This document shows, in pieces, positions 209 to 18,929 of a stretch of 28,715 nucleotides of DNA. The DNA comes from a virus. Positions within the stretch are counted from its first letter, which is position 1, and each line of letters opens with the position of its first letter. The stretch spans positions 1 to 28,715 of IMG/VR virus record IMGVR_UViG_3300042518_000880; one strand, given 5' to 3'. The position numbers and the translations under genes were made by a program. A model generated the notes under the pieces. That model ran no database searches. It was not told the origin of the DNA and worked only from the letters and a program-made list of their open reading frames with translations.

Positions 209-219
209 GAGTGCATGGC

Positions 220-849
220 ATGCCAGCCGAAATTACGCCCGACGACCCGTTCGGAAAAGCCATCGCGGCGGTGATGGCTCAGGGCGGGTTTTCGTCTGTG
301 CTTGAGATTGGATCGTTTGACGGGCAAGGCTCGACGCAGGTGTTCATCGAATCGCTCCGCGGCGCGGCGTCGCCCCGGCTTGTCTGCGTCGAGGCCAACC
401 CGGCCCGACACCTGGAACTTCGGCAGCGAACCGCGGCATACCCGTGGGTTTCGGCGGTCTGCCGGTCGTCTATTTCCCTTGCGTCGCTGACGCCGCGGGT
501 CTTCGACCGCGACGTGTGGCAGTCGCCGTACAACGGCCTGCAGTACCCGCGCAAGGTGGTCGAAGATTGGTGGCACGAGACTCAGCGAACCCTTGCCGGC
601 GCAGGGCGTGGCTACCTTGAATCCACGACCGACACGTTCGACGTGGCCTTGATCGATGGGGACGAGTTCACCGGGTATGACGACTACCGGCTCATCAAGG
701 ATCGTGTGCGGTGTCTGATGCTCGACGACGCGTTTCACGCATTCAAGTGCCACCGGGCGAACCGCGAACTGGCCGCAGACCCGGCTTGGTTCCCGGTGTG
801 GTGCGACTCGACCGTGCGAAACGGAGCAGCGATATGGGTGCGCCGCTGA
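220..849 (+). CDS. Class I SAM-dependent methyltransferase-like protein
   Basis: The 209-residue product has a Rossmann methyltransferase signature. VLEIGSFDGQGS (about residues 27-38) is the glycine-rich SAM loop, CVEANP with E59 is the acidic residue expected to hold the ribose, and DVALIDGDEF (141-150) followed by LMLDD matches later core strands. FkbM-type and Methyltransf_24-type enzymes, which often act on sugars or small molecules, are the closest families I can name; the substrate is unknown. I prefer ATG 220. A GTG at 211 is also in frame, but it directly abuts the terminator T-tract and has no Shine-Dalgarno. The next gene starts inside this one (834), so it is probably co-translated with two glycosyltransferases. 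The role as a glycan-modifying methyltransferase is inferred from context. Confidence 0.75.
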   Translation: MPAEITPDDPFGKAIAAVMAQGGFSSVLEIGSFDGQGSTQVFIESLRGAASPRLVCVEANPARHLELRQRTAAYPWVSAVCRSSISLASLTPRVFDRDVWQSPYNGLQYPRKVVEDWWHETQRTLAGAGRGYLESTTDTFDVALIDGDEFTGYDDYRLIKDRVRCLMLDDAFHAFKCHRANRELAADPAWFPVWCDSTVRNGAAIWVRR

Positions 850-1556
850 ACATCACCGTCTCGGCATATAACCGCCCGCGGTATCTTGAGCAGACGCTCG
901 CGGCGTTGCGGTCGTGCCGCGGCATCGACGAGTGCCGTGCGGTGGTGCTGATCGACGCCTCTGACGAGTCTGTGCATTCCGCTGCGATCGCGGCCCGGTA
1001 CGGCTTTGAGTCTCGCACCTACGCCGACCGTCAGGGGTGCAACAAAGCGATCCGCAACGCTCTGGCGTACGGGTTCAGCGAGATGGGCAGCGAGTTCCAC
1101 GTTCATCTTGAGGACGACACGGTGCCGACGCGCGACTGCCTGCGGTGGTTCGCGTGGGCGAGGGATGAGTACCGCAACGACCCTCGCGTGATGAACGTCT
1201 CGGGCTACCAAAAGATCAGCAACGGGCGGCCCGGCGAGTGCGGACTGCGGAGGTGGTTCACGCCGTGGGGCTGGGGCGTCTGGCGGGACCGGTGGATCGG
1301 GCTGCACTTCGGGTGGGTGCCAGACGACGAAAATTCGTGGGACGTGATCGTGAATCACGCCCTGCGGGCCGGGCGGTATGAGGTATTCCCCGCCGTCAGC
1401 CGCATCCAGAACATCGGAGCGGAGCGGGGCACGCATGTGCCGAGTGCCGAATGGCACGCCGCACACCACCACGTTGCCGAAACGGCTGACGACATCGCGG
1501 CTCACGTGGAGCGGTGGACGGCGACCCGCGTAGACGACAAGGCCGATCACGCATGA
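834..1556 (+). CDS. GT-A type glycosyltransferase (GT2/GT13-like)
   Basis: The 240-residue product opens with NITVSAYNRPRYLEQTLAAL, the typical first strand and helix of a nucleotide-sugar GT-A fold. An acidic metal-site motif, HLEDDTVPTRDCLRWF (E93-D95), follows, and then an aromatic GWGVWRDRW segment like the acceptor region of GnT-I-type (GT13) and related GT2 enzymes. GGAG at 823-826 lies 7 bases before ATG 834 and decides this start, which overlaps the methyltransferase by 16 bases. It overlaps the next glycosyltransferase in an ATGA. The expected reaction is transfer of a sugar from a nucleotide-sugar to an unknown acceptor. The presence of a whole trio suggests stepwise building of a decorated glycan on virion or host surface. 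Confidence 0.8.
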   Translation: MGAPLNITVSAYNRPRYLEQTLAALRSCRGIDECRAVVLIDASDESVHSAAIAARYGFESRTYADRQGCNKAIRNALAYGFSEMGSEFHVHLEDDTVPTRDCLRWFAWARDEYRNDPRVMNVSGYQKISNGRPGECGLRRWFTPWGWGVWRDRWIGLHFGWVPDDENSWDVIVNHALRAGRYEVFPAVSRIQNIGAERGTHVPSAEWHAAHHHVAETADDIAAHVERWTATRVDDKADHA

Positions 1557-2419
1557 GCGAAATCACCTACAACGACCTGACAGACCACGGGGCCGACAAG
1601 CTCCTGCCGCCCGACGCGGAGTTCGTCGAGGACTACCACTCGCGAGTCGCAGCCGGCCGGCTGTGGGCGTCGCGGTCGTCGGTGGCGTTCGTGGGCATCT
1701 GCCGCAACGCGATGCCGTGGCTGCACTGGACGCTCGGGCGCGTTGAAGTCACCGGTCGCTACTTTGGTCATTGGTCGGCGTTCATCTACGAAAACGACTC
1801 GACCGACGGAACCAAAGAGCGGCTTGCCCAGTGGGCCGACGACGAGGCCCGTCAGGTATCGCTGAACGTCAACGGCCGCCCGCACCTCAACCACACGACC
1901 GAGACGGCCCGCACGTTCGCGCTGGCTGAGTACCGCACCGCGTGTCAGTCATGGGTTCGGGCCAAGGCCGTCGTACCGGATTACGTCGTGGTGTTCGACA
2001 CCGACCCGTGGGGCGGCTGGAGCGTGGACGGCGTCTTGAACTCCATCGGCTGGCTGTCCGACCCGGCGAGCCCGTTCTATGGCGAGGCCGCGATGGCTTC
2101 GTATTCGTGGGGCGAGGTTCGGCAGGCGGCGGGGCCGATGGCGATTCATTACGACGCCTTCGCAGCGCGGCTCAACCACTGGCAGCGGCGGGACCAAAAC
2201 TGGTTTCACCTGTGGCATCCGGCGGTCGGCTCCCCCCCGGTGCCGTTCCGGTCGGCGTTCGGGCAGTTGGCAGTCTATCGAACGGCCGACTACCTCCGCG
2301 GCAGGTACACGGGCGAGGACTGCGAACACGTCACGTTCCACCGCTCGATCGGCCGGCCGGTCTACCTCAACCCGTCGAGCCGCTGCGTTTCATTTTGGGT
2401 ACCGCACGATGCCCGGTGA
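1553..2419 (+). CDS. Glycosyltransferase, GT69-like
   Basis: The 288-residue product contains SVAFVGICRNAMPWL and then YENDSTDGT (residues 79-87). It has a central VVVFDTD (145-151) that would be the metal-binding DxD, and later acceptor-side segments rich in Trp and His. An ENDSTDGT turn followed by DxD is what I associate with GT69 (Cap59/CMT1-like mannosyltransferases) and similar GT-A enzymes found in phages; the donor sugar is not predictable. ATG 1553 overlaps the upstream TGA (ATGA), indicating translational coupling with the other glycosyltransferase. The 3' end overlaps the start of the 2409 gene by 11 bases. Confidence 0.75.
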   Translation: MSEITYNDLTDHGADKLLPPDAEFVEDYHSRVAAGRLWASRSSVAFVGICRNAMPWLHWTLGRVEVTGRYFGHWSAFIYENDSTDGTKERLAQWADDEARQVSLNVNGRPHLNHTTETARTFALAEYRTACQSWVRAKAVVPDYVVVFDTDPWGGWSVDGVLNSIGWLSDPASPFYGEAAMASYSWGEVRQAAGPMAIHYDAFAARLNHWQRRDQNWFHLWHPAVGSPPVPFRSAFGQLAVYRTADYLRGRYTGEDCEHVTFHRSIGRPVYLNPSSRCVSFWVPHDAR

Positions 2420-5537: not shown

Positions 5538-6779
5538 ATGGGCATGAGCGGACGGCTACTGAGGCCGAAAGGTTCTTCAGCGCCGGTGTTCACCGAAGCG
5601 GGCTACACCCGCCTGTGGTGCGTGACGGATAAATCCACAGGCAACGTCACCGGGACTGCGGAATCCGACACCGGATTCTACGCCGTGAAGTGGTGGGACA
5701 ACACCACGACGGTGTACGAGAGTGGCGACACGTTCAGCAAGTCGGCGGGGGGGAGGAAGGCGTTTGAGATTTTCCCGTCCGATACGATGGGCGATCCAGA
5801 GGGCCAGTTCGACGGCTTCGACATTAGCGACAACGCGCTCACGCAAGTGCGTGCCGAAGATGTATCGCTGTTTGGTTCGGCTGGCTGGCCGGGCTTTTGG
5901 TATTGGACGTACCCGGCGGGAATGCAGAATTGGTTTCCGGGCACGCCCGCCGGGTACGAAGGCGGGACAATCAGCAAAAACTCGCTATCGGCCACCGCGC
6001 TAGACCAGTTCTACGCCGACTTGGACGCAGGCGGTGGAAGACTGTTCGTTGATCGCAATCCCGGCATCGGCGCCGACACCCCGACGATTGCGACAACGAA
6101 GGGGTATACAGTGTTTGGGAGCGTGCCGCCGCAGACGACGGTCCTGCTGCCGTTCGACAGCAATTTCGATGACGCTACGGGGGGCGCGCCGATCCCCTCA
6201 TATAGTGGCGATGTGTTCATCGACGCGTCGGTAAAGAAGTACGGGGCTGGCTCACTGCGCGCGGAAGGCGGGTATCTGGAGTTCGCAGACAGCCCGGCGT
6301 TTGACATCAATTACCTTGAGCCGTTTACGATTGAAATGTGGCTGCGCATCAACGAACGCGGCAATGGCTACTGTACTGTGGCCACGAAGCGATCGGGCGT
6401 TGACTGGCAATGGCTTGTTGGTTTCAGCAATCCCGAGACGGCGAATTTTTACTTTTCTGCAAACTCCTCTGGTGGCGGTGGTGGCGCCGGCGGGCAAAAC
6501 GAAGTATTTGACCCGACCGAAATGGACGAGGGCGTGTGGTATCACTACGCAATCGTCGGAGTCCCTGGCACCGTGAAGATGTATCGCAACGGCGCGGAGG
6601 TCGCATCCGGCCCCTTCGCCTCGCAGCCTAACAACGGGCAACCTGTGACACTGGGAGCGTTGGCGGGAGGAGGCGAGCCGTTTGACGGGAACATTGATGA
6701 CTTTCGCGTTGTGAAAAATGCGGCAGTATATACCGCGAACTTCACCCCCCCCACCGGCCCGCTCGGAGTGTACCCGTAA
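5538..6779 (+). CDS. LRR-cap plus LamG domain adhesin-like phage protein
   Basis: The 413-residue product has two parts. Residues about 20-195 resemble the degenerate leucine-rich-repeat modules seen in phage and environmental proteins. They hold a WDNTTTVYESGDTFS beta region, FDISDNALTQV, and the closing cap NSLSATALDQFYADL...DRNPG...TIATTKGYTVFG. Residues about 200-405 form a concanavalin A-like LamG/Laminin_G_3 sandwich, with LLPFDSNFDD, FTIEMWLRI, GVWYHYAIVG, VKMYRNGAEVASG and GNIDDFRV in order. GAGGA at 5523-5527 precedes ATG 5538. It probably binds carbohydrate, so a receptor-binding or virion-surface role is likely. It overlaps the sulfotransferase gene by one base (TAATG). Confidence 0.8.
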   Translation: MGMSGRLLRPKGSSAPVFTEAGYTRLWCVTDKSTGNVTGTAESDTGFYAVKWWDNTTTVYESGDTFSKSAGGRKAFEIFPSDTMGDPEGQFDGFDISDNALTQVRAEDVSLFGSAGWPGFWYWTYPAGMQNWFPGTPAGYEGGTISKNSLSATALDQFYADLDAGGGRLFVDRNPGIGADTPTIATTKGYTVFGSVPPQTTVLLPFDSNFDDATGGAPIPSYSGDVFIDASVKKYGAGSLRAEGGYLEFADSPAFDINYLEPFTIEMWLRINERGNGYCTVATKRSGVDWQWLVGFSNPETANFYFSANSSGGGGGAGGQNEVFDPTEMDEGVWYHYAIVGVPGTVKMYRNGAEVASGPFASQPNNGQPVTLGALAGGGEPFDGNIDDFRVVKNAAVYTANFTPPTGPLGVYP

Positions 6780-7471
6780 TGTTTTACTACTCCACCCCCA
6801 ACTACAGCGTTGCCCTCAACGCGAAGGTCGGCTCAACGGCGATGGCCCGCGCGCTCATTCGGCAGTTCTATCCGCGACTGGACTGGCTGATTCGCACTGC
6901 TGCCTTTCCGGCCGGCGTGACAGAGGCAGATCGTCCGTTCCATTGGATGTGTCCCGGCAGGCGGACGCCTGACAAACCTGTGGTCCTCCTCGTCCGTGAT
7001 CCTGTGGACAGGTTCATCACAGCCTGCCAGCAAGTCGGCATCAGCACGCGAAAGGCGGATGCCGCGATTGCCTCACTGGTTGAAGACAAGCCGTTCGCGA
7101 GGTCGAAGCCCAGCGACATTACGCCCGAGCGATGGGCCGAGCAGCGAGAGCGGGCGGCCAAGCGGGTGGCGCGAATGCAGCGGCGTGACAGAAAGTGGCG
7201 GCCGGATCGGCTGCGTGCCGACGCGCATTTCTTCCACCAGTACCAGTACGCAGTCGGCCCGACAACCTGTTTCCGATTCCCTCGCGACATTGCGGCGGCG
7301 GCGGCGTTCATCGGCATCGACGCCCCTCTGCCGGAACTCAACCGGGCACGGCGGGAAAAGCCGACACTGACCAAGCAGGAGGCCGATGCGGTGCGGGCGT
7401 ACTACGCGGTGGACCAAGCCCTGTTCGATGCGATCGCGCAGGCTGGATACGTCTACACGCCGCCCGCGTGA
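6779..7471 (+). CDS. Sulfotransferase-family protein
   Basis: The 230-residue product shows the two PAPS-binding signatures of the sulfotransferase fold. NAKVGSTAMARAL (14-26) is the 5'-phosphosulfate loop and VLLVRDPVDRFITAC (69-83) is the 3'-phosphate-binding motif. Later helices include PTLTKQEADAVRAYYAVDQALFDAI, which is like the C-terminal region of carbohydrate sulfotransferases. The length is close to minimal for the family. ATG 6779 overlaps the stop of the LamG protein, so the two are co-translated. It may sulfate a glycan on the virion or the host surface; the acceptor is unknown. Confidence 0.8.
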   Translation: MFYYSTPNYSVALNAKVGSTAMARALIRQFYPRLDWLIRTAAFPAGVTEADRPFHWMCPGRRTPDKPVVLLVRDPVDRFITACQQVGISTRKADAAIASLVEDKPFARSKPSDITPERWAEQRERAAKRVARMQRRDRKWRPDRLRADAHFFHQYQYAVGPTTCFRFPRDIAAAAAFIGIDAPLPELNRARREKPTLTKQEADAVRAYYAVDQALFDAIAQAGYVYTPPA

Positions 7472-7703: not shown

Positions 7704-8060
7704 ATGTCTGAGATGCGCATCGTTCGCCGGGTCAGGTTCTCGCCGATCACGCTGGCTACGGCCACGGCGTCGTGCGCCACGCTGAACCTCGGCGACATGG
7801 CAGGCGGCGTCGTGTCGTTCGGCACCATGCTGACCGCGGCCACCTCGCTCCAAATGTGGGGAGCCACGGACGAGGCCGGTCCGTTCCGCCGGGTCTACAA
7901 GGCTGACGGCTCGGCGGCCGACGTCACGCTGGCCCCCAGCACGGCCGACGGCCGCGTGTACGCCCTGCCCGACGAAGTGTTCGCCGTGCCGTGGCTCAAG
8001 ATCGCGTCGGCCACTACGAACTCGACCGGCACGATTGGCGTGGTCTCCCTGAAGTCGTGA
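7704..8060 (+). CDS. Small virion-type protein, function unknown
   Basis: The 118-residue product is rich in Ala, Thr, Ser and Val. Its beta-type pattern (SLQMWGATDEAGPFRRVYKADG, then a conserved-looking WLKI...TGTIGVVSLKS ending) resembles small phage proteins that carry deviation-from-nominal data-like beta domains. The gene at 17663-18115 has a similar composition and a comparable closing strand, so both may be capsid-associated or decoration proteins; this is inference. GGAG in acaggagaaacgct precedes ATG 7704. The gene sits immediately before the HNH endonuclease gene with a one-base gap. Confidence 0.6.
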   Translation: MSEMRIVRRVRFSPITLATATASCATLNLGDMAGGVVSFGTMLTAATSLQMWGATDEAGPFRRVYKADGSAADVTLAPSTADGRVYALPDEVFAVPWLKIASATTNSTGTIGVVSLKS

Positions 8061-8061
8061 G

Positions 8062-8403
8062 ATGCCGACGCGTATCCCTACGTTCCGTGCCACGCCGCTG
8101 CTGCGGGCGTTCCGCCAGCCCGACGACAGGCCCAACGCCTACCAGCGTGGATACACCGACCGGCGGCACCAAGCGTGGCGGCTTGCGGTCCTGACCCGCG
8201 ACGCGTGGCAGTGCCAGCGATGCGGCCGCGTCTGTGCCGACAAGCGTGAGGCACACGCCGACCACATCAGCCCGGTGGTGCATGGGACCGGCGTGTGCCG
8301 CGATGGCCGCTCCCGGTACGACGTGGATGGCGGGCAGTGCCTGTGCCACTCCTGCCACAGTCGCAAGACAAACTCCGATCAGTGTGCGATTTCTCAGGGA
8401 TGA
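8062..8403 (+). CDS. HNH endonuclease (packaging-associated type)
   Basis: The 113-residue product has an HNH nuclease core. CQRCGRVC supplies the first zinc-ligand pair, HADHISPVVHG carries the catalytic-type His in the DH motif, and QCLCHSCHSRKT supplies the second Cys pair and the last HNH helix. Small HNH proteins beside terminase genes are known to be needed for cos cleavage in many HK97-like phages, so this is a likely packaging cofactor. Unusually, it is separated from the terminase pair by a ParB-like gene and a DNA-modification cassette. The N-terminal 40 residues are basic and may contact DNA. Confidence 0.85.
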   Translation: MPTRIPTFRATPLLRAFRQPDDRPNAYQRGYTDRRHQAWRLAVLTRDAWQCQRCGRVCADKREAHADHISPVVHGTGVCRDGRSRYDVDGGQCLCHSCHSRKTNSDQCAISQG

Positions 8404-8631
8404 CCGCGATGGAATGGCCCCATGTAATAAGGGGGAGTTGGGCCGACGCCTCGCGGCCGCGTAGCCCCCGGTAGGGGGGGGTGGGGCGCGCCTTCCGGCG
8501 GTTTTTGACGAAAACCGGGTGTTTCCTCCCCCCCGTGCGGCCGGGGGTTTTCGGCCCCCCCGGTCGAACGCTTGCCACGGCCCCTATAACGCGATCCTAG
8601 GCCCGATGCCGCCACCCCCCGTGAAACCCCG
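8404..8631 (+). other. Non-coding gap with G/C tracts and hairpins; possible packaging site
   Basis: This 228-base gap is the largest in the window. It contains CCCCC (8465-8469) facing a G8 run (8474-8481). It also has a perfect 7-bp hairpin CGGTTTT/AAAACCG (8499-8505 with 8511-8517, loop TGACG), a C7 run, and a hairpin CCGGGGG/CCCCCGG (8541-8547 with 8557-8563). A 21-codon ORF at 8409-8474 is not convincing. Structured non-coding DNA next to HNH and terminase genes is where cos or terminase recognition sites often lie, but no cleavage site can be identified by eye. There is no clear promoter. Confidence 0.5.
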
Positions 8632-9267
8632 ATGAACATCCGAAACCGCGTCAAATCGCTCCGCATGGTCCCTGCCAGCGACCTCCGGCCCAATCCGAAG
8701 AACTGGCGAACCCATCCGAAGGCCCAGCAGGATGCCCTCCGGGGCGTGCTGGCCGAAGTCGGCCTTGCCGACGCCTGCCTCGCCCGCGAGTTGCCAGACG
8801 GATCCCTCATGCTGATCGACGGCCACCTGCGTGCCGAGACGCTTGGCGACGGCGACGTGCCGGTGCTGGTCCTCGACGTGAACGAGGCCGAGGCCGACAA
8901 GATTCTCGCGACGCTCGATCCGCTGGCGGCGATGGCGGATTCCGACGCGGCGAAGTTGGACGAACTGCTTCGCACCGTCGATACCGGGAGCGAGGCGTTG
9001 CAGCAGATGCTGTCGGCGACGGCGAGCGCGGCGGGGCTGTATCAAGAACTCAGCACGTCGCTCGGCAACGACGGCGACGACCAGCCGGATGAAGATGCCG
9101 CTGGCGAGCCTCCCCCGAGCGGCGTCCGCATGGTGCAGTTGTTTCTCGACGAGTCGAACATCGGAGAGTTTCAAGACGCCTGCGCTGCGCTCGCCGAAGC
9201 ATACGGCACGCACAACATAACCGACACGATTCTGGAGGCGGTGCGTCGTGCAAGTGCATCACTGTAA
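8632..9267 (+). CDS. ParB/Srx-fold domain protein
   Basis: The 211-residue product has an N-terminal ParB-like (sulfiredoxin fold) domain. The strand RMVPASDLRPNPKNWRTHP is followed by a helix and then LPDGSLMLIDGHLRAE, whose DGHxR is the family nucleotide/phosphate-binding signature. A helical middle section and an acidic linker (GDDQPDEDAAGE) lead to a C-terminal domain (VRMVQLFLDESNIGEFQ...TDTILEAVRR) typical of phage ParB-like proteins. Many such proteins sit beside DNA methylases or terminases; a methylase is absent here. The next gene starts inside its 3' end (20-base overlap), linking it to the TET/JBP dioxygenase. Confidence 0.8.
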   Translation: MNIRNRVKSLRMVPASDLRPNPKNWRTHPKAQQDALRGVLAEVGLADACLARELPDGSLMLIDGHLRAETLGDGDVPVLVLDVNEAEADKILATLDPLAAMADSDAAKLDELLRTVDTGSEALQQMLSATASAAGLYQELSTSLGNDGDDQPDEDAAGEPPPSGVRMVQLFLDESNIGEFQDACAALAEAYGTHNITDTILEAVRRASASL

Positions 9268-10165
9268 GGAGAAGTTCCCGGCCGACCACCTCGCGGGAAC
9301 CAAACTCGACGAGTCGCACTACGATCACCTGCTAGGCGGCGACGAACCGTGCGACGTTTTCAAGCCAGACGGCACGCCGCTGGTCAAGTACCGCCCGCGA
9401 TGGTTCGGCGAGGATTTGTGCCGGTCGGTTCTGCCAGCGTGCCGCAAGGCGGCAACGAAAACGAACAATCGCGGCATGGCGGCTGGTGACATCAAGCAAG
9501 TCTCGCTCGGAACGCATCGGCCAATCGAGGCGCACTCAAAAACGAACTTCCGAACGATCAAGCAAGACGGCACGATCAGCAACACCACTCGCGGCGGCGA
9601 GGTTGAAAGCGGAATCATTGGATACTTCGACCGCAGTGCGAGGTTTCCGTTTTGCCGTCAAACATCGTTCTTGATTTCGCAGGCCGCTACGTGGAAGCGT
9701 TTCCTTCCGTACATCGAACGCGCTGATCAAGGGTTCCGCGAGTTCACGCCGGATCGCTGGGCTGCACAGCGCAACTGCGCGAGTCGCACCGCGTCGGATT
9801 GGGTCATCCCGCAAAGCACCTTCACCACGGTCACCGTCAATAAGAACTTCCAGACCGCGACTCACAAGGACGCCGGCGACCTTGCCGCCGGGTTCGGCGT
9901 CATGTCGTGCCTGCGGAACGACAAGTACGACGGGGCGTATCTGGTGTTCCCGGCGTACCGCGTCGCGGTCAACTTCGACCACGGGTGCCTGTGCCTTGCG
10001 GACGTGCATGAGTGGCACAGCAACACGTCATTCACGCGGATGCGGCTCGGCTACGAGCGCATCACACTCGTCTTCTACTACCGCGAGAACATGATCCACT
10101 GCAAAGAAGCCAAAGCGGAAGTCGAGTGGGCGAAGAACAGAAAAAGAGGGGAGCCGCTCGCATAA
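9248..10165 (+). CDS. TET/JBP-type 2-oxoglutarate/Fe(II) dioxygenase
   Basis: The 305-residue product carries the double-stranded beta-helix dioxygenase core of phage TET/JBP enzymes. STFTTVTVNKNFQTATHKDAGD holds the HxD metal dyad (H206, D208). Then come GAYLVFPAYRVAVNFDHG, ADVHEWHSNT with the distal His (H257 likely, H254 the alternative), and YERITLVFYYRE with R271 as the expected 2-oxoglutarate-binding Arg. TET/JBP family enzymes oxidise the methyl group of 5-methylcytosine or thymine in DNA to hydroxymethyl or further. GTG 9248 is the most upstream plausible start (GTG 9254 is an alternative) and overlaps the ParB-like gene. A glycosyltransferase follows with a TAATG overlap, suggesting oxidation then glycosylation of phage DNA. 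Confidence 0.88.
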   Translation: MQVHHCKEKFPADHLAGTKLDESHYDHLLGGDEPCDVFKPDGTPLVKYRPRWFGEDLCRSVLPACRKAATKTNNRGMAAGDIKQVSLGTHRPIEAHSKTNFRTIKQDGTISNTTRGGEVESGIIGYFDRSARFPFCRQTSFLISQAATWKRFLPYIERADQGFREFTPDRWAAQRNCASRTASDWVIPQSTFTTVTVNKNFQTATHKDAGDLAAGFGVMSCLRNDKYDGAYLVFPAYRVAVNFDHGCLCLADVHEWHSNTSFTRMRLGYERITLVFYYRENMIHCKEAKAEVEWAKNRKRGEPLA

Positions 10166-11109
10166 TGGCTATATGTCTTTTCTATCTCGCAGAGCCGAGG
10201 TACGGCGGTTGGCCTACCTACACGTCGCATCTCTACAGAGGCCTCGCAGAAACAGGCAAGCGGCCAGTGCTGTTCAAGATAGGTAGCAAAACAGACGGCA
10301 GAATGCGGCCGTACGGCAGGGGGATCGAATACACAAACATCACGCTAAGCGATGCAGTTTCAATGGCGCGAAGCAACCCGTGTTTCATCACCGCAGTTGG
10401 AAAGGGATACTACGACGCCGCGTGCAGTTTGATGCTTTCGGGTGCATCCGTTTGCGTGCACGATCCAACGGAACTGAAAGAGCCTTTTGCATCGGCACTC
10501 CCGGCGGCGAAGGTGGTTGTGATCCGTGAGTCGATGCTTTCGCACCTCCCTCATGCGAAGTTCACCCTTCATCCTTACGCGCCCCGTGGGCAGCAAGGAA
10601 CCAAAGAAAAACTGGCGTGCGCGATATCAAGAATCGACCACGACAAAAACACATCCATCATCGCATCCGCGAACGAACGGCTAAAAGAGCCTGTTCAACT
10701 TTACGGCGCGATCAACCGCATCTACTCCTACTTCACGCTCGACGCGAAGCACCCAGGCTGGGAGAAGAACTATGTCTCCTCCCCGAGCGCGAACAGCCTC
10801 TGGGCGTGTCAGAAAATCGCTTGCGGGTACAAAAAAATGGTCGATCTTTCTGTCATCAAAAAAGACGGCAGGGGAACGCAGTACACGTTCCTTGAGGCAG
10901 TGGACGCAGGATGTTCCCTGATTTTGCACGAAGCATGGGAACCGAGCGGCCTGCTTTCGCAACTAAGCCGTACCGTTCGCTGCTCCGATAGCTTGGTCGA
11001 GGAGCTTGCGAAACCGTGCAGGTTCGACAAAAAAGCCGCCCAGCAGTTGCTGCTAAATCACTGTCACAAGAAAATAGCAGCACAAACCTGCGAAGCGATA
11101 GGAGCATGA
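10165..11109 (+). CDS. GT-B glycosyltransferase coupled to the dioxygenase
   Basis: The 314-residue product looks like a GT4-like GT-B enzyme. An N-terminal YGGWPTYTSHLYRGLAETG loop (13-31) is followed by SRIDHDKNTSIIASANERL (155-173), which resembles the hinge of the C-terminal domain. Then comes GRGTQYTFLEAVDAGCSLILHE (236-256), whose FLEA E244 matches the donor-sugar binding Glu region. ATG 10165 overlaps the dioxygenase stop; GGGGAG lies about 11 bases upstream. Its DNA is clearly more A+T rich than its neighbours, with many AAA, ATA and AGA codons and several A-runs, which suggests separate acquisition. The natural role is adding a sugar to hydroxymethylated bases, inferred from adjacency. 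Confidence 0.78.
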   Translation: MAICLFYLAEPRYGGWPTYTSHLYRGLAETGKRPVLFKIGSKTDGRMRPYGRGIEYTNITLSDAVSMARSNPCFITAVGKGYYDAACSLMLSGASVCVHDPTELKEPFASALPAAKVVVIRESMLSHLPHAKFTLHPYAPRGQQGTKEKLACAISRIDHDKNTSIIASANERLKEPVQLYGAINRIYSYFTLDAKHPGWEKNYVSSPSANSLWACQKIACGYKKMVDLSVIKKDGRGTQYTFLEAVDAGCSLILHEAWEPSGLLSQLSRTVRCSDSLVEELAKPCRFDKKAAQQLLLNHCHKKIAAQTCEAIGA

Positions 11110-11110
11110 C

Positions 11111-11638
11111 ATGGGCAAACGTGGCCCCGCCCCCGAACCGTCGATCCTGAAATACATTCGCGGCAACCCGTCGAAGGCGGCGCTGCCGACGAACGAGCCG
11201 ACGCCCGACCTGCTCGACAACCTCGACCCTCCCGGGTGGATTGCCGAAGACCCGGTCGCGGTGAAGAAGTGGAACGACACCGTGCCGATGCTGCGGCGGA
11301 TGCGAGTGTTCACGGAGGCCGACGTTGATGCGTGGGCACTCTATTGCCACACGTGGTCTAAATGGCTGGAGGCCCGCGACAAGTGCAAGCAGTTGGGCCG
11401 CGACAACATCACGATGGAGCCAGACCCGAACCGCACGGACGGACGGCTGCGAATCAAATGGACGCAGCCGTTTTCATGGTCGGTCGATGAACGGTCGCTG
11501 CGTGGCGACTTGCGAAGGATGCAGCAAGACTTCGGCATGACGCCAAGCAGCCGGTCACAGGTGAGCACGCATGGCAGTGAAGAAGCAGACCCGGTTGCCG
11601 CCTACGCTGCGAAGCGACGCCGCACGCCTGGGGCTTGA
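11111..11638 (+). CDS. Terminase small subunit, P27 family
   Basis: The 175-residue product begins MGKRGPAPEPSILKYIRGNPSK, the hallmark opening of P27-family small terminases. A helical DNA-binding and oligomerisation region follows (EDPVAVKKWNDTVPMLRRMRVFTEADVDAWALYC), then LRRMQQDFGMTPSSRSQV, a common end of the conserved part. It recognises phage DNA and recruits the large subunit for packaging. Its last 23 codons are basic and Ala-rich and overlap the large terminase by 68 bases in another frame. It starts right after the glycosyltransferase stop. Confidence 0.92.
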   Translation: MGKRGPAPEPSILKYIRGNPSKAALPTNEPTPDLLDNLDPPGWIAEDPVAVKKWNDTVPMLRRMRVFTEADVDAWALYCHTWSKWLEARDKCKQLGRDNITMEPDPNRTDGRLRIKWTQPFSWSVDERSLRGDLRRMQQDFGMTPSSRSQVSTHGSEEADPVAAYAAKRRRTPGA

Positions 11639-13184
11639 CTACTACTTCGACCCTGAAGCCGCGCAGCACGCCGTCAACTTTTTTGAAGGCTGGCTGCGGC
11701 ACAGCAAAGGGAAGCACGCGGGCCAGCCGTTTGCCCTGCTTGAGTGGCAGACGGTGATGATCGGCGAGTTGTTCGGCTGGAAGCGACTCGCCGACGACAC
11801 CCGTCGCTATCGCGTGGCCTACATCTCCACGGGGAAGAAGCAGGGGAAGTCAACGCTCCTCGCGGGCATCGGTCTGTATCTGCTTGTGATGGATGGAGAG
11901 AACGGGGCCGAGGTGTACGGGGCGGCTGCGGACCGTGAGCAAGCCTCGTTGGTCTACAGAGAAATGGCGTCGATGGTGCGGGCGTCGCCGCAACTCTCCC
12001 GCGTGCTGGAAGTCATCGACTCCCGCCGCACGATCGCCTACCGCAAAGAGGCGTCGTTCTACCGCGTACTTTCGGCGGATGCTTTCAGGGCGGAAGGGTT
12101 GAACATTCACGGGCTGCTGTTTGACGAGCTGCACAGCCAGCGTGACCGAAGGCTTTTCGACTCGCTCCGCTACGGAGGCGCGGCGCGAGAGCAGCCGCTC
12201 CTTGTGTCGGTGACGACGGCCGGCCACGACCGCAACTCTATCTGCTGGGAGCAGTACACCTACGCCAAGGCCGTGCTGCGGGATTGGACGCACGACCCGA
12301 CGTTCTTTCCTTGCATCTACGAGGCCGAGGAATCGGACGAATGGACAGCCGAGGATACGTGGCCGAAGGCGAACCCGTCGTGGGGCGTGACGATCAAACC
12401 GGAGGACTTCGCCGCCGACTGCCGCGAGGCCCAACTTTCCAACACGAAAGAAAACTCGTTCCGCCGCTACCGACTCAACCAGTGGACGCAGCAGGACACG
12501 CGCTGGATTCGCATGGAGGCGTGGGACGCTTGCGCCTCGGAGCCGCCCGGCCCGCTCGACCGGCGGGAGTGCTGGTGCGGCCTCGACCTTGCGACCACCT
12601 ACGACACCTCGGCGTTCGTCGCGGTGTTCCCCGCCCCCGACGGCACCTACGACGTTCTGTGCCGTTTCTGGATTCCAGGGGACAACGCACAGGAGCGGGA
12701 GCGAAAGGACCGCGTGCCGTACGTGTCGTGGGCGAAAGACGCGTCCACCGGCCTGACCATGACGGGCGGAAACGTGACGGACTTCGACGTGATCCGCCGG
12801 GACATTGTTCAGTTTTCCAAGCAATACAACGTGCGGCAGCTGGCCATCGATAGATGGTCGGCTACGCAGTTGTCCTTGCAACTGCAAGGGGACGGGCTCG
12901 ACGTTGTAGGTTTTGGACAGGGCTACGCCAGCATGAGCCCGGCCGCAAAGCAACTGGAAAACCTCATCGCATCGGGGAAGCTCCGGCACGGTGGTAACAA
13001 AATCCTCGGATGGATGGCCGGCAACGTCAGCGTGAAGATGGACGCCGCAGGGAACATCAAACCGATCAAGCCGGAATACGGGAAAAGCGAACGGATCGAC
13101 GGCATCGTGGCTTTGACGATGGCAGTCGGCATCCACGCCGCGAAGAAGCCTCAAGAACAAGCCCCCGAAATCTTCATCATCTGA
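11571..13184 (+). CDS. Terminase large subunit (Terminase_1/HK97 type)
   Basis: The 537-residue product is full length for the family. The ATPase half has the Walker A-like STGKKQGKST (86-95), Walker B LLFDE (182-186) and an SVTTAGHD coupling segment. The nuclease half has WCGLDLATTYDTSAF with acidic D339 and D345, later IDRWSAT, and a closing ERIDGIVALTMA acidic motif. It powers DNA translocation into the prohead and cuts the concatemer. ATG 11571, with AGGTGAG just upstream, overlaps the small subunit by 68 bases. P27 plus Terminase_1 plus HNH is a typical cos-packaging set. Confidence 0.95.
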   Translation: MAVKKQTRLPPTLRSDAARLGLDYYFDPEAAQHAVNFFEGWLRHSKGKHAGQPFALLEWQTVMIGELFGWKRLADDTRRYRVAYISTGKKQGKSTLLAGIGLYLLVMDGENGAEVYGAAADREQASLVYREMASMVRASPQLSRVLEVIDSRRTIAYRKEASFYRVLSADAFRAEGLNIHGLLFDELHSQRDRRLFDSLRYGGAAREQPLLVSVTTAGHDRNSICWEQYTYAKAVLRDWTHDPTFFPCIYEAEESDEWTAEDTWPKANPSWGVTIKPEDFAADCREAQLSNTKENSFRRYRLNQWTQQDTRWIRMEAWDACASEPPGPLDRRECWCGLDLATTYDTSAFVAVFPAPDGTYDVLCRFWIPGDNAQERERKDRVPYVSWAKDASTGLTMTGGNVTDFDVIRRDIVQFSKQYNVRQLAIDRWSATQLSLQLQGDGLDVVGFGQGYASMSPAAKQLENLIASGKLRHGGNKILGWMAGNVSVKMDAAGNIKPIKPEYGKSERIDGIVALTMAVGIHAAKKPQEQAPEIFII

Positions 13185-18194: not shown

Positions 18195-18929
18195 ATGCTG
18201 GTCAAAGTCGGCGGAACGGACGTTGAGGTGCGGGTCGAGTGCGTGCTCTCGGCTCCGCGGTTCGGTCCCTTGGCGAACGTGTTCGGCTGGATTCAGGCGT
18301 TGATGCCGCTTCATATTCGCCCGACGCTCGGGCAGGGGGCGCTGTGGGGGCAGGTGCTGGCTCGCCTGCTCGACCAGTTCAAGGACACGACCGAGTACAT
18401 TCTTTGCACCGACTACGACTCGTTTTGGGATCAGCGAGTTGTCGAGGAACTCATCGCGACCGCGATGGTGTTTCAGTGCGACGCGATCGCCCCGCTTCAG
18501 GTCAAGCGGGAGGACGGCCGCCCCATGTTCACGCTCCTGAACACGCTCGACAACCCGCCGCCGAACGGGCAGACCGAACTGGACATGTCGTGGTTCGCCC
18601 AGCCGGTGCAGGAAGTGGACAGCGCCCACTTCGGCTGCACGGTCATTTCAACGCGGGCGCTACGGCGAACGCTCAAGCCGTGGTTCCAAGATCAGCCGAA
18701 CGAGGCCGGCGACTTCTCCGACGGGCGTACCGATGCGGACATTTGGTTCTGGAAGCAATTCAAGAAGTCGGGCAACAAGCTCTACATCTCGCCGCGAACG
18801 TGCATCGGGCACGGGGAGTACGTGGCGGTCTGGCCGGGGCAGCAACTCCAGAAGCCTGTGTACCAGTACCTCTCGGACTACCAGGCCAACGGCAAGCCGA
18901 AAACTGCATGGAGCGTACCCCAATCGTGA
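18195..18929 (+). CDS. GT-A type glycosyltransferase in the head-tail region
   Basis: The 244-residue product has a nucleotide-sugar transferase layout. TEYILCTDYDSFWD holds a DxD-type D73-x-D75. QCDAIAPLQVKREDGRPMFTLL is an inner strand region, SAHFGCTVISTRALRRTLKPWF an acceptor-side loop, and DADIWFWKQFKKSGNKLYISPRTCIGHGEY carries the late Asp and His found in GT2/GT-A enzymes. GGAGG (18185-18189) directly follows the terminator T-tract and precedes ATG 18195. Its place among virion genes suggests glycosylation of a capsid or tail protein, but it could equally be a moron acting on the host. It overlaps the next gene in GTGA. Confidence 0.78.
   Translation: MLVKVGGTDVEVRVECVLSAPRFGPLANVFGWIQALMPLHIRPTLGQGALWGQVLARLLDQFKDTTEYILCTDYDSFWDQRVVEELIATAMVFQCDAIAPLQVKREDGRPMFTLLNTLDNPPPNGQTELDMSWFAQPVQEVDSAHFGCTVISTRALRRTLKPWFQDQPNEAGDFSDGRTDADIWFWKQFKKSGNKLYISPRTCIGHGEYVAVWPGQQLQKPVYQYLSDYQANGKPKTAWSVPQS

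What the first reader, a model, noticed from the sequence alone, without database searches (positions are those of the whole stretch)
9248..11109. TET/JBP dioxygenase coupled to a GT-B glycosyltransferase: probable DNA hypermodification cassette
The 9248 gene has the TET/JBP metal site (H206, D208, distal H257) and Arg271, and its stop overlaps the start of a glycosyltransferase. Phage TET/JBP enzymes are known to oxidise methylated pyrimidines in DNA, and known systems then glycosylate the hydroxymethyl group. Co-translation of the two genes suggests a two-step base modification, perhaps protecting virion DNA from host nucleases.
Basis: partly seen in the sequence, partly recalled or inferred. 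Interest (0 to 1): 0.9.

Follow-up and report, generated by a model that had tools for sequence, protein, structure and literature searches.

The report
Phage DNA-base oxidise-and-glycosylate gene pair
A bacterial virus from metagenomes carries a TET/JBP-type oxidase gene directly joined to a sugar-transferase gene, and comparison with many relatives suggests that the pair puts a sugar on DNA bases, more likely thymine than methylcytosine, probably to hide the viral DNA from host defences.

Summary
Gene 9248-10165 is a Tet_JBP dioxygenase (Pfam E 9e-21) with H206, D208, H257 and R271 invariant in 107 of 107 rows. Its stop shares one base with the start of gene 10165-11109, which no profile library names but whose deep-alignment model (pLDDT 97) is a GT-B fold; T4 DNA alpha-glucosyltransferase is the top Foldseek hit in the PDB. 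DNA hypermodification is well supported: ParB precedes TET in 79 of 80 relatives, and the gene after TET varies among this GT-B, TAGT, ADDT plus P-loop kinase, and FkbM methyltransferase. The GT-B belongs to a phage family: 57 of 79 loci also hold TET; of the other 22, 14 hold a thymidylate-synthase-family and/or 5-hmdU DNA kinase gene; none holds both kinds. ParB is in 53 of 57 TET loci and 0 of those 14. I favour thymine to 5hmU to glycosyl-5hmU, a base-J-like route, over 5mC. Against it, 6 of 19 TET+GT-B records from other TET clades carry a C5 methylase. No chemistry is shown. TET-plus-GT cassettes are known; the GT-B family, the swap of hydroxymethyl source and the ParB link are the new variant.

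The parts
8632..9267 (+). ParB-like protein (211 aa), overlaps the TET start by 20 bases; proposed DNA-binding or loading partner of the oxidase
   Evidence: PHROG ParB-like families, phrog_723 E 4.4e-10 and phrog_620 E 1.4e-9; no Pfam match for this copy. A ParB-like gene lies upstream of TET in 79 of 80 relatives.
9248..10165 (+). TET/JBP 2-oxoglutarate/Fe(II) dioxygenase (305 aa, GTG start)
   Evidence: PF12851 E 9.2e-21, 74.2 bits, cut-off 34.9; H206, D208, H257, R271 invariant in 107 of 107 rows.
10165..11109 (+). GT-B glycosyltransferase (314 aa), start shares one base with the TET stop; member of a phage family without a Pfam model of its own
   Evidence: No Pfam, PHROG or NCBIfam match; model pLDDT 97.0, pTM 0.93; Foldseek rank 1 in PDB 1ya6_A, T4 DNA alpha-glucosyltransferase, E 2.3e-10; Z 22.1-24.7 for the first 23 rows, mostly retaining GT-B enzymes.

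Best explanation
8632-11109 is a three-gene DNA base-hypermodification cassette. The ParB-like protein binds or loads on phage DNA (inferred). The TET/JBP dioxygenase then hydroxylates the methyl group of a 5-methylpyrimidine in finished DNA, most likely thymine, giving 5-hydroxymethyluracil (family and active site shown; substrate inferred). The GT-B enzyme then moves a sugar from a nucleotide-sugar onto that hydroxymethyl group (fold shown by a predicted model; donor, linkage and acceptor inferred), giving a glycosylated base analogous to kinetoplastid base J. The modified DNA is packaged by the adjacent terminase and resists host nucleases (inferred). The place after TET is a plug-in site in which phages exchange the second-step enzyme.
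For: Tet_JBP family and active site. GT-B fold with T4 AGT as top Foldseek hit; T4 AGT has been solved with DNA holding an HMU base (titles of 1y8z and 1y6g). In the window's own TET clade (30 loci at 66% identity or more) the locus after TET holds TAGT-type 15, GT-B 7, ADDT plus kinase 6, FkbM 2 (families checked by Pfam on examples). ADDT (amino acid:DNA transferase) plus P-loop kinase points to the 5hmU route; a cultured phage with parB-like, tet-like, aGPT-Pplase2 and 5-hmU kinase genes is described as possibly a thymidine hypermodification system (PMC11955845, passages). Of 79 loci of the GT-B family, 57 carry TET and 14 carry a PF00303-type gene and/or a 5-hmdU DNA kinase; 0 carry both. 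PF00303 is in 13 of 22 TET-less records (12 over the cut-off) and in 0 of 50 chosen TET records. ParB is in 53 of 57 TET-linked GT-B loci (in the 4 misses TET begins within 70 bases of the contig end) and in 0 of 14 linked to TS/kinase. C5 methylase PF00145 is in 0 of 19 records of the window's lineage, many of them fragments but among them two that look complete, G017 and G008.
Against: No modified base has been measured. 8 of 50 TET records carry PF00145, 6 of them among the 19 TET+GT-B records (about 4 distinct lineages), all of other TET clades (Fisher p 0.04 on contigs that are not independent). One of these, L198, has one of the two nearest GT relatives outside the window's clade (46%). 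One record of the window's own TET clade (G023) has a weak partial PF00145 hit (25.2 bits). Phage Melnitz-3 has a HhaI-type methylase gene just before TET. PF00303 also covers ordinary thymidylate synthases, so the TS-family gene need not be a hydroxymethylase. Two of the 8 GT-B loci with neither TET nor TS/kinase do carry ParB (L201, L203), so ParB is not strictly tied to TET, and 6 of 8 named TET phages show no ParB within 4 kb. The residue five after the metal His is D in 67, N in 39 and S in 1 of 107 rows and does not separate C5-bearing from ADDT-bearing loci. Six archaeal GT-B relatives have no such neighbours, so DNA as acceptor is not built into the family.
Confidence: 0.6

Rival explanations
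1. Same cassette, but the base is 5-methylcytosine: a host or phage C5 methylase makes 5mC, TET oxidises it to 5hmC, and the GT-B glycosylates 5hmC.
For: This is the published picture of phage TET systems (PMC12730594, passages). PF00145 is in 6 of 19 TET+GT-B records of other TET clades, in 2 of 31 other TET records, and in Melnitz-3 next to TET. T4 AGT, the top Foldseek hit, glucosylates hmC in T4 (PMC13216743, passages).
Against: PF00145 in 0 of 19 records of the window's lineage, and 1 weak partial hit in 22 searched of the 30 records of its TET clade. The same TET clade also takes ADDT plus kinase. The GT-B family occurs with TS-family and 5-hmdU kinase genes where TET is missing.
Confidence: 0.28
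2. TET and GT-B do not act in series on DNA: the GT modifies a virion, surface or other glycan and is only a neighbour.
For: The window holds other GT-like genes far from TET (834-2419). Archaeal relatives of the GT-B stand without TET, TS or ParB.
Against: TET is next to the GT-B in 54 of 79 loci, in both gene orders (30 TET first, 24 GT first); the well-supported branches of the TET tree force at least 3 changes of the GT-B label, so the pairing is not one frozen ancestral event; 14 of the 22 TET-less loci have 5-hmdU pathway genes.
Confidence: 0.08
3. The TET enzyme acts on RNA or on free nucleotides rather than on polymerised DNA.
For: Little; one weaker PHROG match carries a tRNA-modification label (phrog_6059, E 2e-9).
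Against: Tet_JBP enzymes studied so far act on DNA (PMC12730594, passages); a ParB-like gene precedes TET in 79 of 80 loci and the partners are DNA-modifying families.
Confidence: 0.04

Closest known systems
Phage C5-methylase / TET / glycosyltransferase cytosine hypermodification cassettes (PMC12730594, passages; Burke 2021 and Iyer 2013 recalled, not held)
   Same: TET/JBP dioxygenase beside a glycosyltransferase in a phage, with interchangeable tailoring enzymes
   Different: No C5 methylase found in this lineage; the GT is a GT-B that Pfam does not recognise instead of the GT-A TAGT; a ParB-like gene is part of the unit
parB-like / tet-like / aGPT-Pplase2 / 5-hmU kinase genes of Rhodococcus phage Tonitrus (PMC11955845, passages) and ParB-TET-ADDT-kinase ahead of the terminase in Gordonia phage LittleMunchkin
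   Same: ParB then TET, then a tailoring module (in LittleMunchkin followed by the terminase)
   Different: The tailoring module here is one glycosyltransferase, with no kinase or ADDT between TET and the terminase
T4 DNA alpha-glucosyltransferase (GT63, PF11440)
   Same: GT-B fold, top Foldseek match, DNA hydroxymethyl acceptor in T4
   Different: 11-14% identity, no profile match; works in T4 on hydroxymethylcytosine put in during replication, not after TET; many cellular retaining GT-B enzymes score as high
Base J synthesis (JBP thymine hydroxylase, then glycosylation) of kinetoplastids (PMC12730594, passages)
   Same: Same proposed two-step chemistry: thymine to 5hmU in DNA, then glycosyl-5hmU
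   Different: A phage operon; sugar and linkage unknown; the GT was not compared with the kinetoplastid one

Membership tests
Tet_JBP (PF12851) | Profile score over the curated cut-off | tested here: met
   74.2 bits against 34.9
Tet_JBP (PF12851) | HxD...H iron site and distal Arg for 2-oxoglutarate | tested here: met
   H206, D208, H257, R271, invariant in 107 of 107 rows; the roles of the residues are recalled
Tet_JBP (PF12851) | Oxidation of the 5-methyl group of a pyrimidine in DNA | not testable with these tools
   Needs enzyme assay or LC-MS
GT-B fold glycosyltransferases | Two Rossmann-like domains matching solved GT-B enzymes over the full length | tested here: met
   Model pLDDT 97.0; first 23 rows aligned over 289-304 residues at Z 22.1-24.7, rmsd 3.1-3.8
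GT4-type Pfam families (PF13524, PF00534, PF13439, PF13692) | Profile match over the cut-off | tested here: not met
   No match for the window protein up to E 10; of 55 aligned members 5 match PF13524 and 1 each the other three, at E up to 0.01
T4 alpha-glucosyltransferase family (GT63) | Sequence-family membership | tested here: inconclusive
   Top Foldseek hit but tied in Z with other retaining GT-B enzymes; no sequence match in the PDB
TAGT (PF20691) | Profile match in the gene after TET | tested here: not met
   None for the window GT; found over the cut-off in the same place in relatives L007, L014, L016
5mC-based phage TET cassette | Phage-encoded C5 cytosine methylase (PF00145) | tested here: not met
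   0 of 19 records of this lineage, including two that look complete; the window record itself is a fragment
Thymidine hypermodification, nucleotide-level route | Thymidylate-synthase-family enzyme (PF00303) | tested here: not met
   0 of 19 records; TET would take its place
Thymidine hypermodification by TET/JBP | 5hmU or derivative in phage DNA | not testable with these tools
   Uncultivated phage; inferred from neighbours of relatives
ParB-like proteins | Profile match of the 8632 gene | tested here: met
   phrog_723 E 4.4e-10, phrog_620 E 1.4e-9; the window copy has no Pfam match, a relative in L049 matches PF02195

The most novel reading that the evidence does not exclude
Phages run a base-J-like pathway: a TET/JBP enzyme hydroxylates thymine in finished DNA, standing in for the hydroxymethylase and kinase route of the classical 5hmU phages. 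A ParB-like protein is the dedicated loader or guide of that in-DNA oxidation step, since it accompanies TET and is absent from the 14 loci with the nucleotide-level genes. A new GT-B family, not found in 50,697 deposited phage records by four protein queries, then glycosylates the 5hmU.
Probability: 0.45. Interest if true: 0.8.

Novelty: new variant of a known kind. Interest (0 to 1): 0.62.

Why it matters
It ties a glycosyltransferase family that Pfam recognises in only a few members (5 of 55) to phage TET enzymes, and gives a direct test of whether phage TET enzymes oxidise thymine as well as 5mC. A small ParB/TET/GT-B set acting on ordinary T in DNA would also be a useful reagent for writing glycosyl-5hmU into DNA. 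The apparent exchange of TET for a TS-family route suggests how phages mix hydroxymethyl sources with tailoring enzymes.

Tried and rejected
Single-sequence AlphaFold of the GT gave pLDDT 39 and was discarded. PDB sequence searches with the TET and GT alignments found nothing; the deep GT alignment gave five chance-level matches, E 0.14 or worse. The genome-contig scan with the TET protein confirmed none of 25 candidates. I tried the residue five after the metal His (D211) as a T-versus-5mC marker; it fails. The iterative profile 'Amidolig' became contaminated through a chimeric ORF and was dropped from later counts. One TET-GT pair (L128) was missed by the distance rule because its GT ORF was called with an early start, so 54 adjacent cases are at least 55. 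No promoter-like site was found in 8000-11700, and 6 terminator-like sites against 4.4 expected, so nothing is drawn from that. A motif search for the GDP-mannose dehydratase ORF of G008 gave no clear answer. In the two Pfam bulk scans only the first 25 of 36 and of 27 families are shown, and I gave 43 of 55 and 51 of 65 listed ORFs, picked by a longest-ORF rule that can take the wrong strand; the absence of a C5 methylase rests instead. Families not listed by the fold searches are not excluded.

Limits of the counts. They are contigs, some near-identical (for example L050 and L051, G049 and G050, G053 and G054). The TET survey kept the best 80 of 426 relatives, the GT survey the best 80 of 91, 79 distinct loci. 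Labels other than those tested by Pfam come from my own iterative profiles and mean 'somewhere in the fetched locus'. For alignment A6, the model and the GT tree I left out 4 of 59 non-redundant GT rows (L201, L203 and the second copies in L158 and L169) and put the window in place of its twin L050. PF00145 was searched in 22 of the 30 records of the window's TET clade. The 50 TET records were picked by hand as longer contigs. The control genomes did not ring for PF12851, though the same search rings in the window.
Full report
Observation. The 9248 protein matches Tet_JBP over residues 123-280 at E 9.2e-21. H206, D208, H257 and R271 are present and invariant in 11 of 11 close sequences and 107 of 107 rows of a wide alignment. 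The second gene starts on the last base of the TET stop. Upstream, a ParB-like gene (8632-9267) overlaps the TET start; downstream lie the terminase genes. The window is a virus record of 28,715 bases; relatives of 52-54 kb suggest that it is a fragment.

Setting. Of 17 viral contigs with a close TET, 17 show ParB before TET and 14 show a TerS like the window's after the next gene or genes; the other 3 (L013-L015) do not. What lies between differs: the window's GT (6 of 17), TAGT-type glycosyltransferases, an FkbM methyltransferase (L013), and in L012 an amidoligase, a phosphatase-like protein, a further protein without a Pfam match, ADDT and a P-loop kinase. TAGT is over Pfam's cut-off in L007, L014 and L016; L011 is below it and L005 has no match, so the TAGT label for that subgroup rests on my own profile.

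Wider survey of TET. An alignment query found 426 relatives; the best 80 were kept. A ParB-like gene lies upstream in 79 of 80 (in the exception, L084, TET begins 50 bases from the contig end). The loci hold ADDT and/or kinase in 46, TAGT-type in 24, GT-B in 7, FkbM in 2, none recognised in 1; one of the 80 also has a C5 methylase in the fetched stretch. Within the window's clade (30 loci, 66-100% identity) the numbers are TAGT-type 15, GT-B 7, ADDT plus kinase 6, FkbM 2. Pfam confirmed ADDT in 5 of 5 and the kinase in 6 of 6 examples tested. A TET tree (107 rows, quick method, several long branches flagged) needs at least 16 changes among the four partner types; the GT-B label alone needs 6, of which well-supported branches force 3. 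So the second-step enzyme is exchanged repeatedly. Among 8 named phages with a TET, my profile finds ParB within 4 kb only in HTVC112P and LittleMunchkin.

The GT. No profile library names the window protein, and no deposited phage record matches it or three distant members of its family by tblastn (0 of 50,697 records each). Searches with growing alignments found 91 relatives in metaviromes, 79 loci kept. From an alignment of 55 sequences a model with mean pLDDT 97.0 was made. Its top Foldseek match in the PDB is T4 DNA alpha-glucosyltransferase (1ya6_A, E 2.3e-10); other GT-B enzymes follow within a factor of ten (7fg9_A, 2.1e-9), and by Z many retaining GT-B enzymes tie with it (Z 22.1-24.7 for the first 23 rows). 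It is thus a GT-B enzyme; DNA as acceptor does not follow from the fold. Twenty-four positions are invariant in the 55, including H99, D100, R156, D160, K161 and T238-Q239-Y240, with E244 nearly so; the R-K pair and the late Glu resemble donor-site residues of retaining GT-B enzymes (recalled, not tested on the model).

What the GT travels with. Of 79 GT loci, 57 hold a TET gene, adjacent in 54 by script (30 TET first, 24 GT first) and in one more by hand. Of the other 22, 14 hold a thymidylate-synthase-family gene and/or a 5-hmdU DNA kinase helical-domain gene (PF00303 in 4 of 4 and PF18723 in 5 of 5 examples tested), some with a radical-SAM gene; 8 hold neither. No locus holds both kinds. 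Whole-record searches agree: PF00303 in 13 of 22 TET-less records (12 over the cut-off) and in 0 of 50 chosen TET records; PF12851 in 0 of the 22 (where the control genomes did not ring either, though the same family rings in the window). The GT tree separates the two partner kinds with 2 changes (39 rows with TET, 13 with TS/kinase, 3 unassigned). ParB is in 53 of 57 TET-linked loci, with TET within 70 bases of a contig end in the four misses, in 0 of 14 TS/kinase-linked loci, and in 2 of the 8 with neither (L201, L203). The simplest reading is that TET and the TS-family route are alternative sources of the same hydroxymethyl group, hence 5hmU, and that ParB serves the TET step. PF00303 alone does not tell a hydroxymethylase from a thymidylate synthase; the 5-hmdU kinase beside it carries that weight.

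Counter-evidence on the base. C5 methylase PF00145 is absent from 19 of 19 records of the window's lineage. Two of these look complete: G017 has a 127-base terminal repeat, and G008 has its large terminase gene split over the two ends (my inference). Among 8 named TET phages it is in 1 (Melnitz-3), directly before TET. It is in 8 of 50 chosen TET records: 6 of the 19 that carry the GT-B, all of other TET clades and about 4 distinct lineages, and 2 of the other 31 (Fisher p 0.04 without correction for relatedness). One belongs to L198, one of the two nearest GT relatives outside the window's clade. One of 22 searched records of the window's TET clade, G023, has a weak partial hit. 5mC therefore stays a live rival, and the GT may accept both bases: T4 beta-GT glucosylates 5hmU in single-stranded DNA, and in double strands only when 5hmU is mispaired with G (abstract of PMC4111573 as listed).

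What is in print. [quoted passage not shown] PMC13216743 (passages) places TAGT in the GT-A and T4 AGT/BGT in the GT-B superfamily. PMC9599517 (passages) reports TS with aG/PT-PPlase1 in pelagiphages; PMC13390438 (passages) shows TAGT in T-even phages. Iyer 2013, Burke 2021, Lee 2018 and Lee 2022 are recalled only; they were not held. Searches listed no paper that I recognised as reporting this GT-B family with TET, but I saw only their listings and the library is open-access only.

Verdict. The cassette is a real member of a known kind, phage TET plus glycosyltransferase (about 0.9 for DNA hypermodification as such), in a new variant: a GT-B family of its own, a likely thymine substrate (about 0.6-0.7), and a ParB-like partner that goes with the TET step.

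Noticed in passing
L205-L210 (Nitrososphaerales / Nitrososphaeraceae / Thaumarchaeota records): All 6 relatives of the GT-B family confirmed in genome contigs lie in records of ammonia-oxidising-type archaea, without TET, TS, kinase or ParB in the fetched stretch: a possible cellular source of the phage family.
   Followed up: partly
window 211-2419: A methyltransferase-like and two GT2-like genes in a row; a second sugar-related cluster, virion or other target unknown.
   Followed up: no
window 6779-7471 and 18204-18926: A weakly sulfotransferase-like gene (phrog_3347, E 0.013) and a protein near the capsid genes that looks GT-A-like by eye only (no profile run on it).
   Followed up: no
L012 2209-5506: Amidoligase, LMW phosphatase-like, unnamed protein, ADDT and P-loop kinase between TET and TerS: an unusual multi-enzyme tailoring module.
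   Followed up: partly
L142 61-2506 and L148 130-1859: A TAGT-type gene directly followed by the GT-B (L142 with TET before it), suggesting two sugar steps in series (TAGT checked by Pfam in L142 only).
   Followed up: no
L152, L157, L158, L160-L164, L169: Radical-SAM-like genes beside or near the GT-B in L152, L157, L158 and L160-L164 (by sequence; Pfam checked in L160 only), and two GT-B copies in L158 and L169.
   Followed up: no
L023 16-973: The GT-B frame is split in two overlapping ORFs in this contig, a frameshift or an assembly error.
   Followed up: no
G008 and G017 records (L024-L029): Phage_integrase-family genes in both near-complete relatives, and a GDP-mannose 4,6-dehydratase in G008: possibly temperate, with own sugar-nucleotide chemistry.
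   Followed up: no
phages collection hits H1, H4, H9, H11: The TET-matching genes are deposited as 'SNF2 DNA repair protein' (H1 also 'DnaJ chaperone protein'), which may be annotation errors.
   Followed up: no
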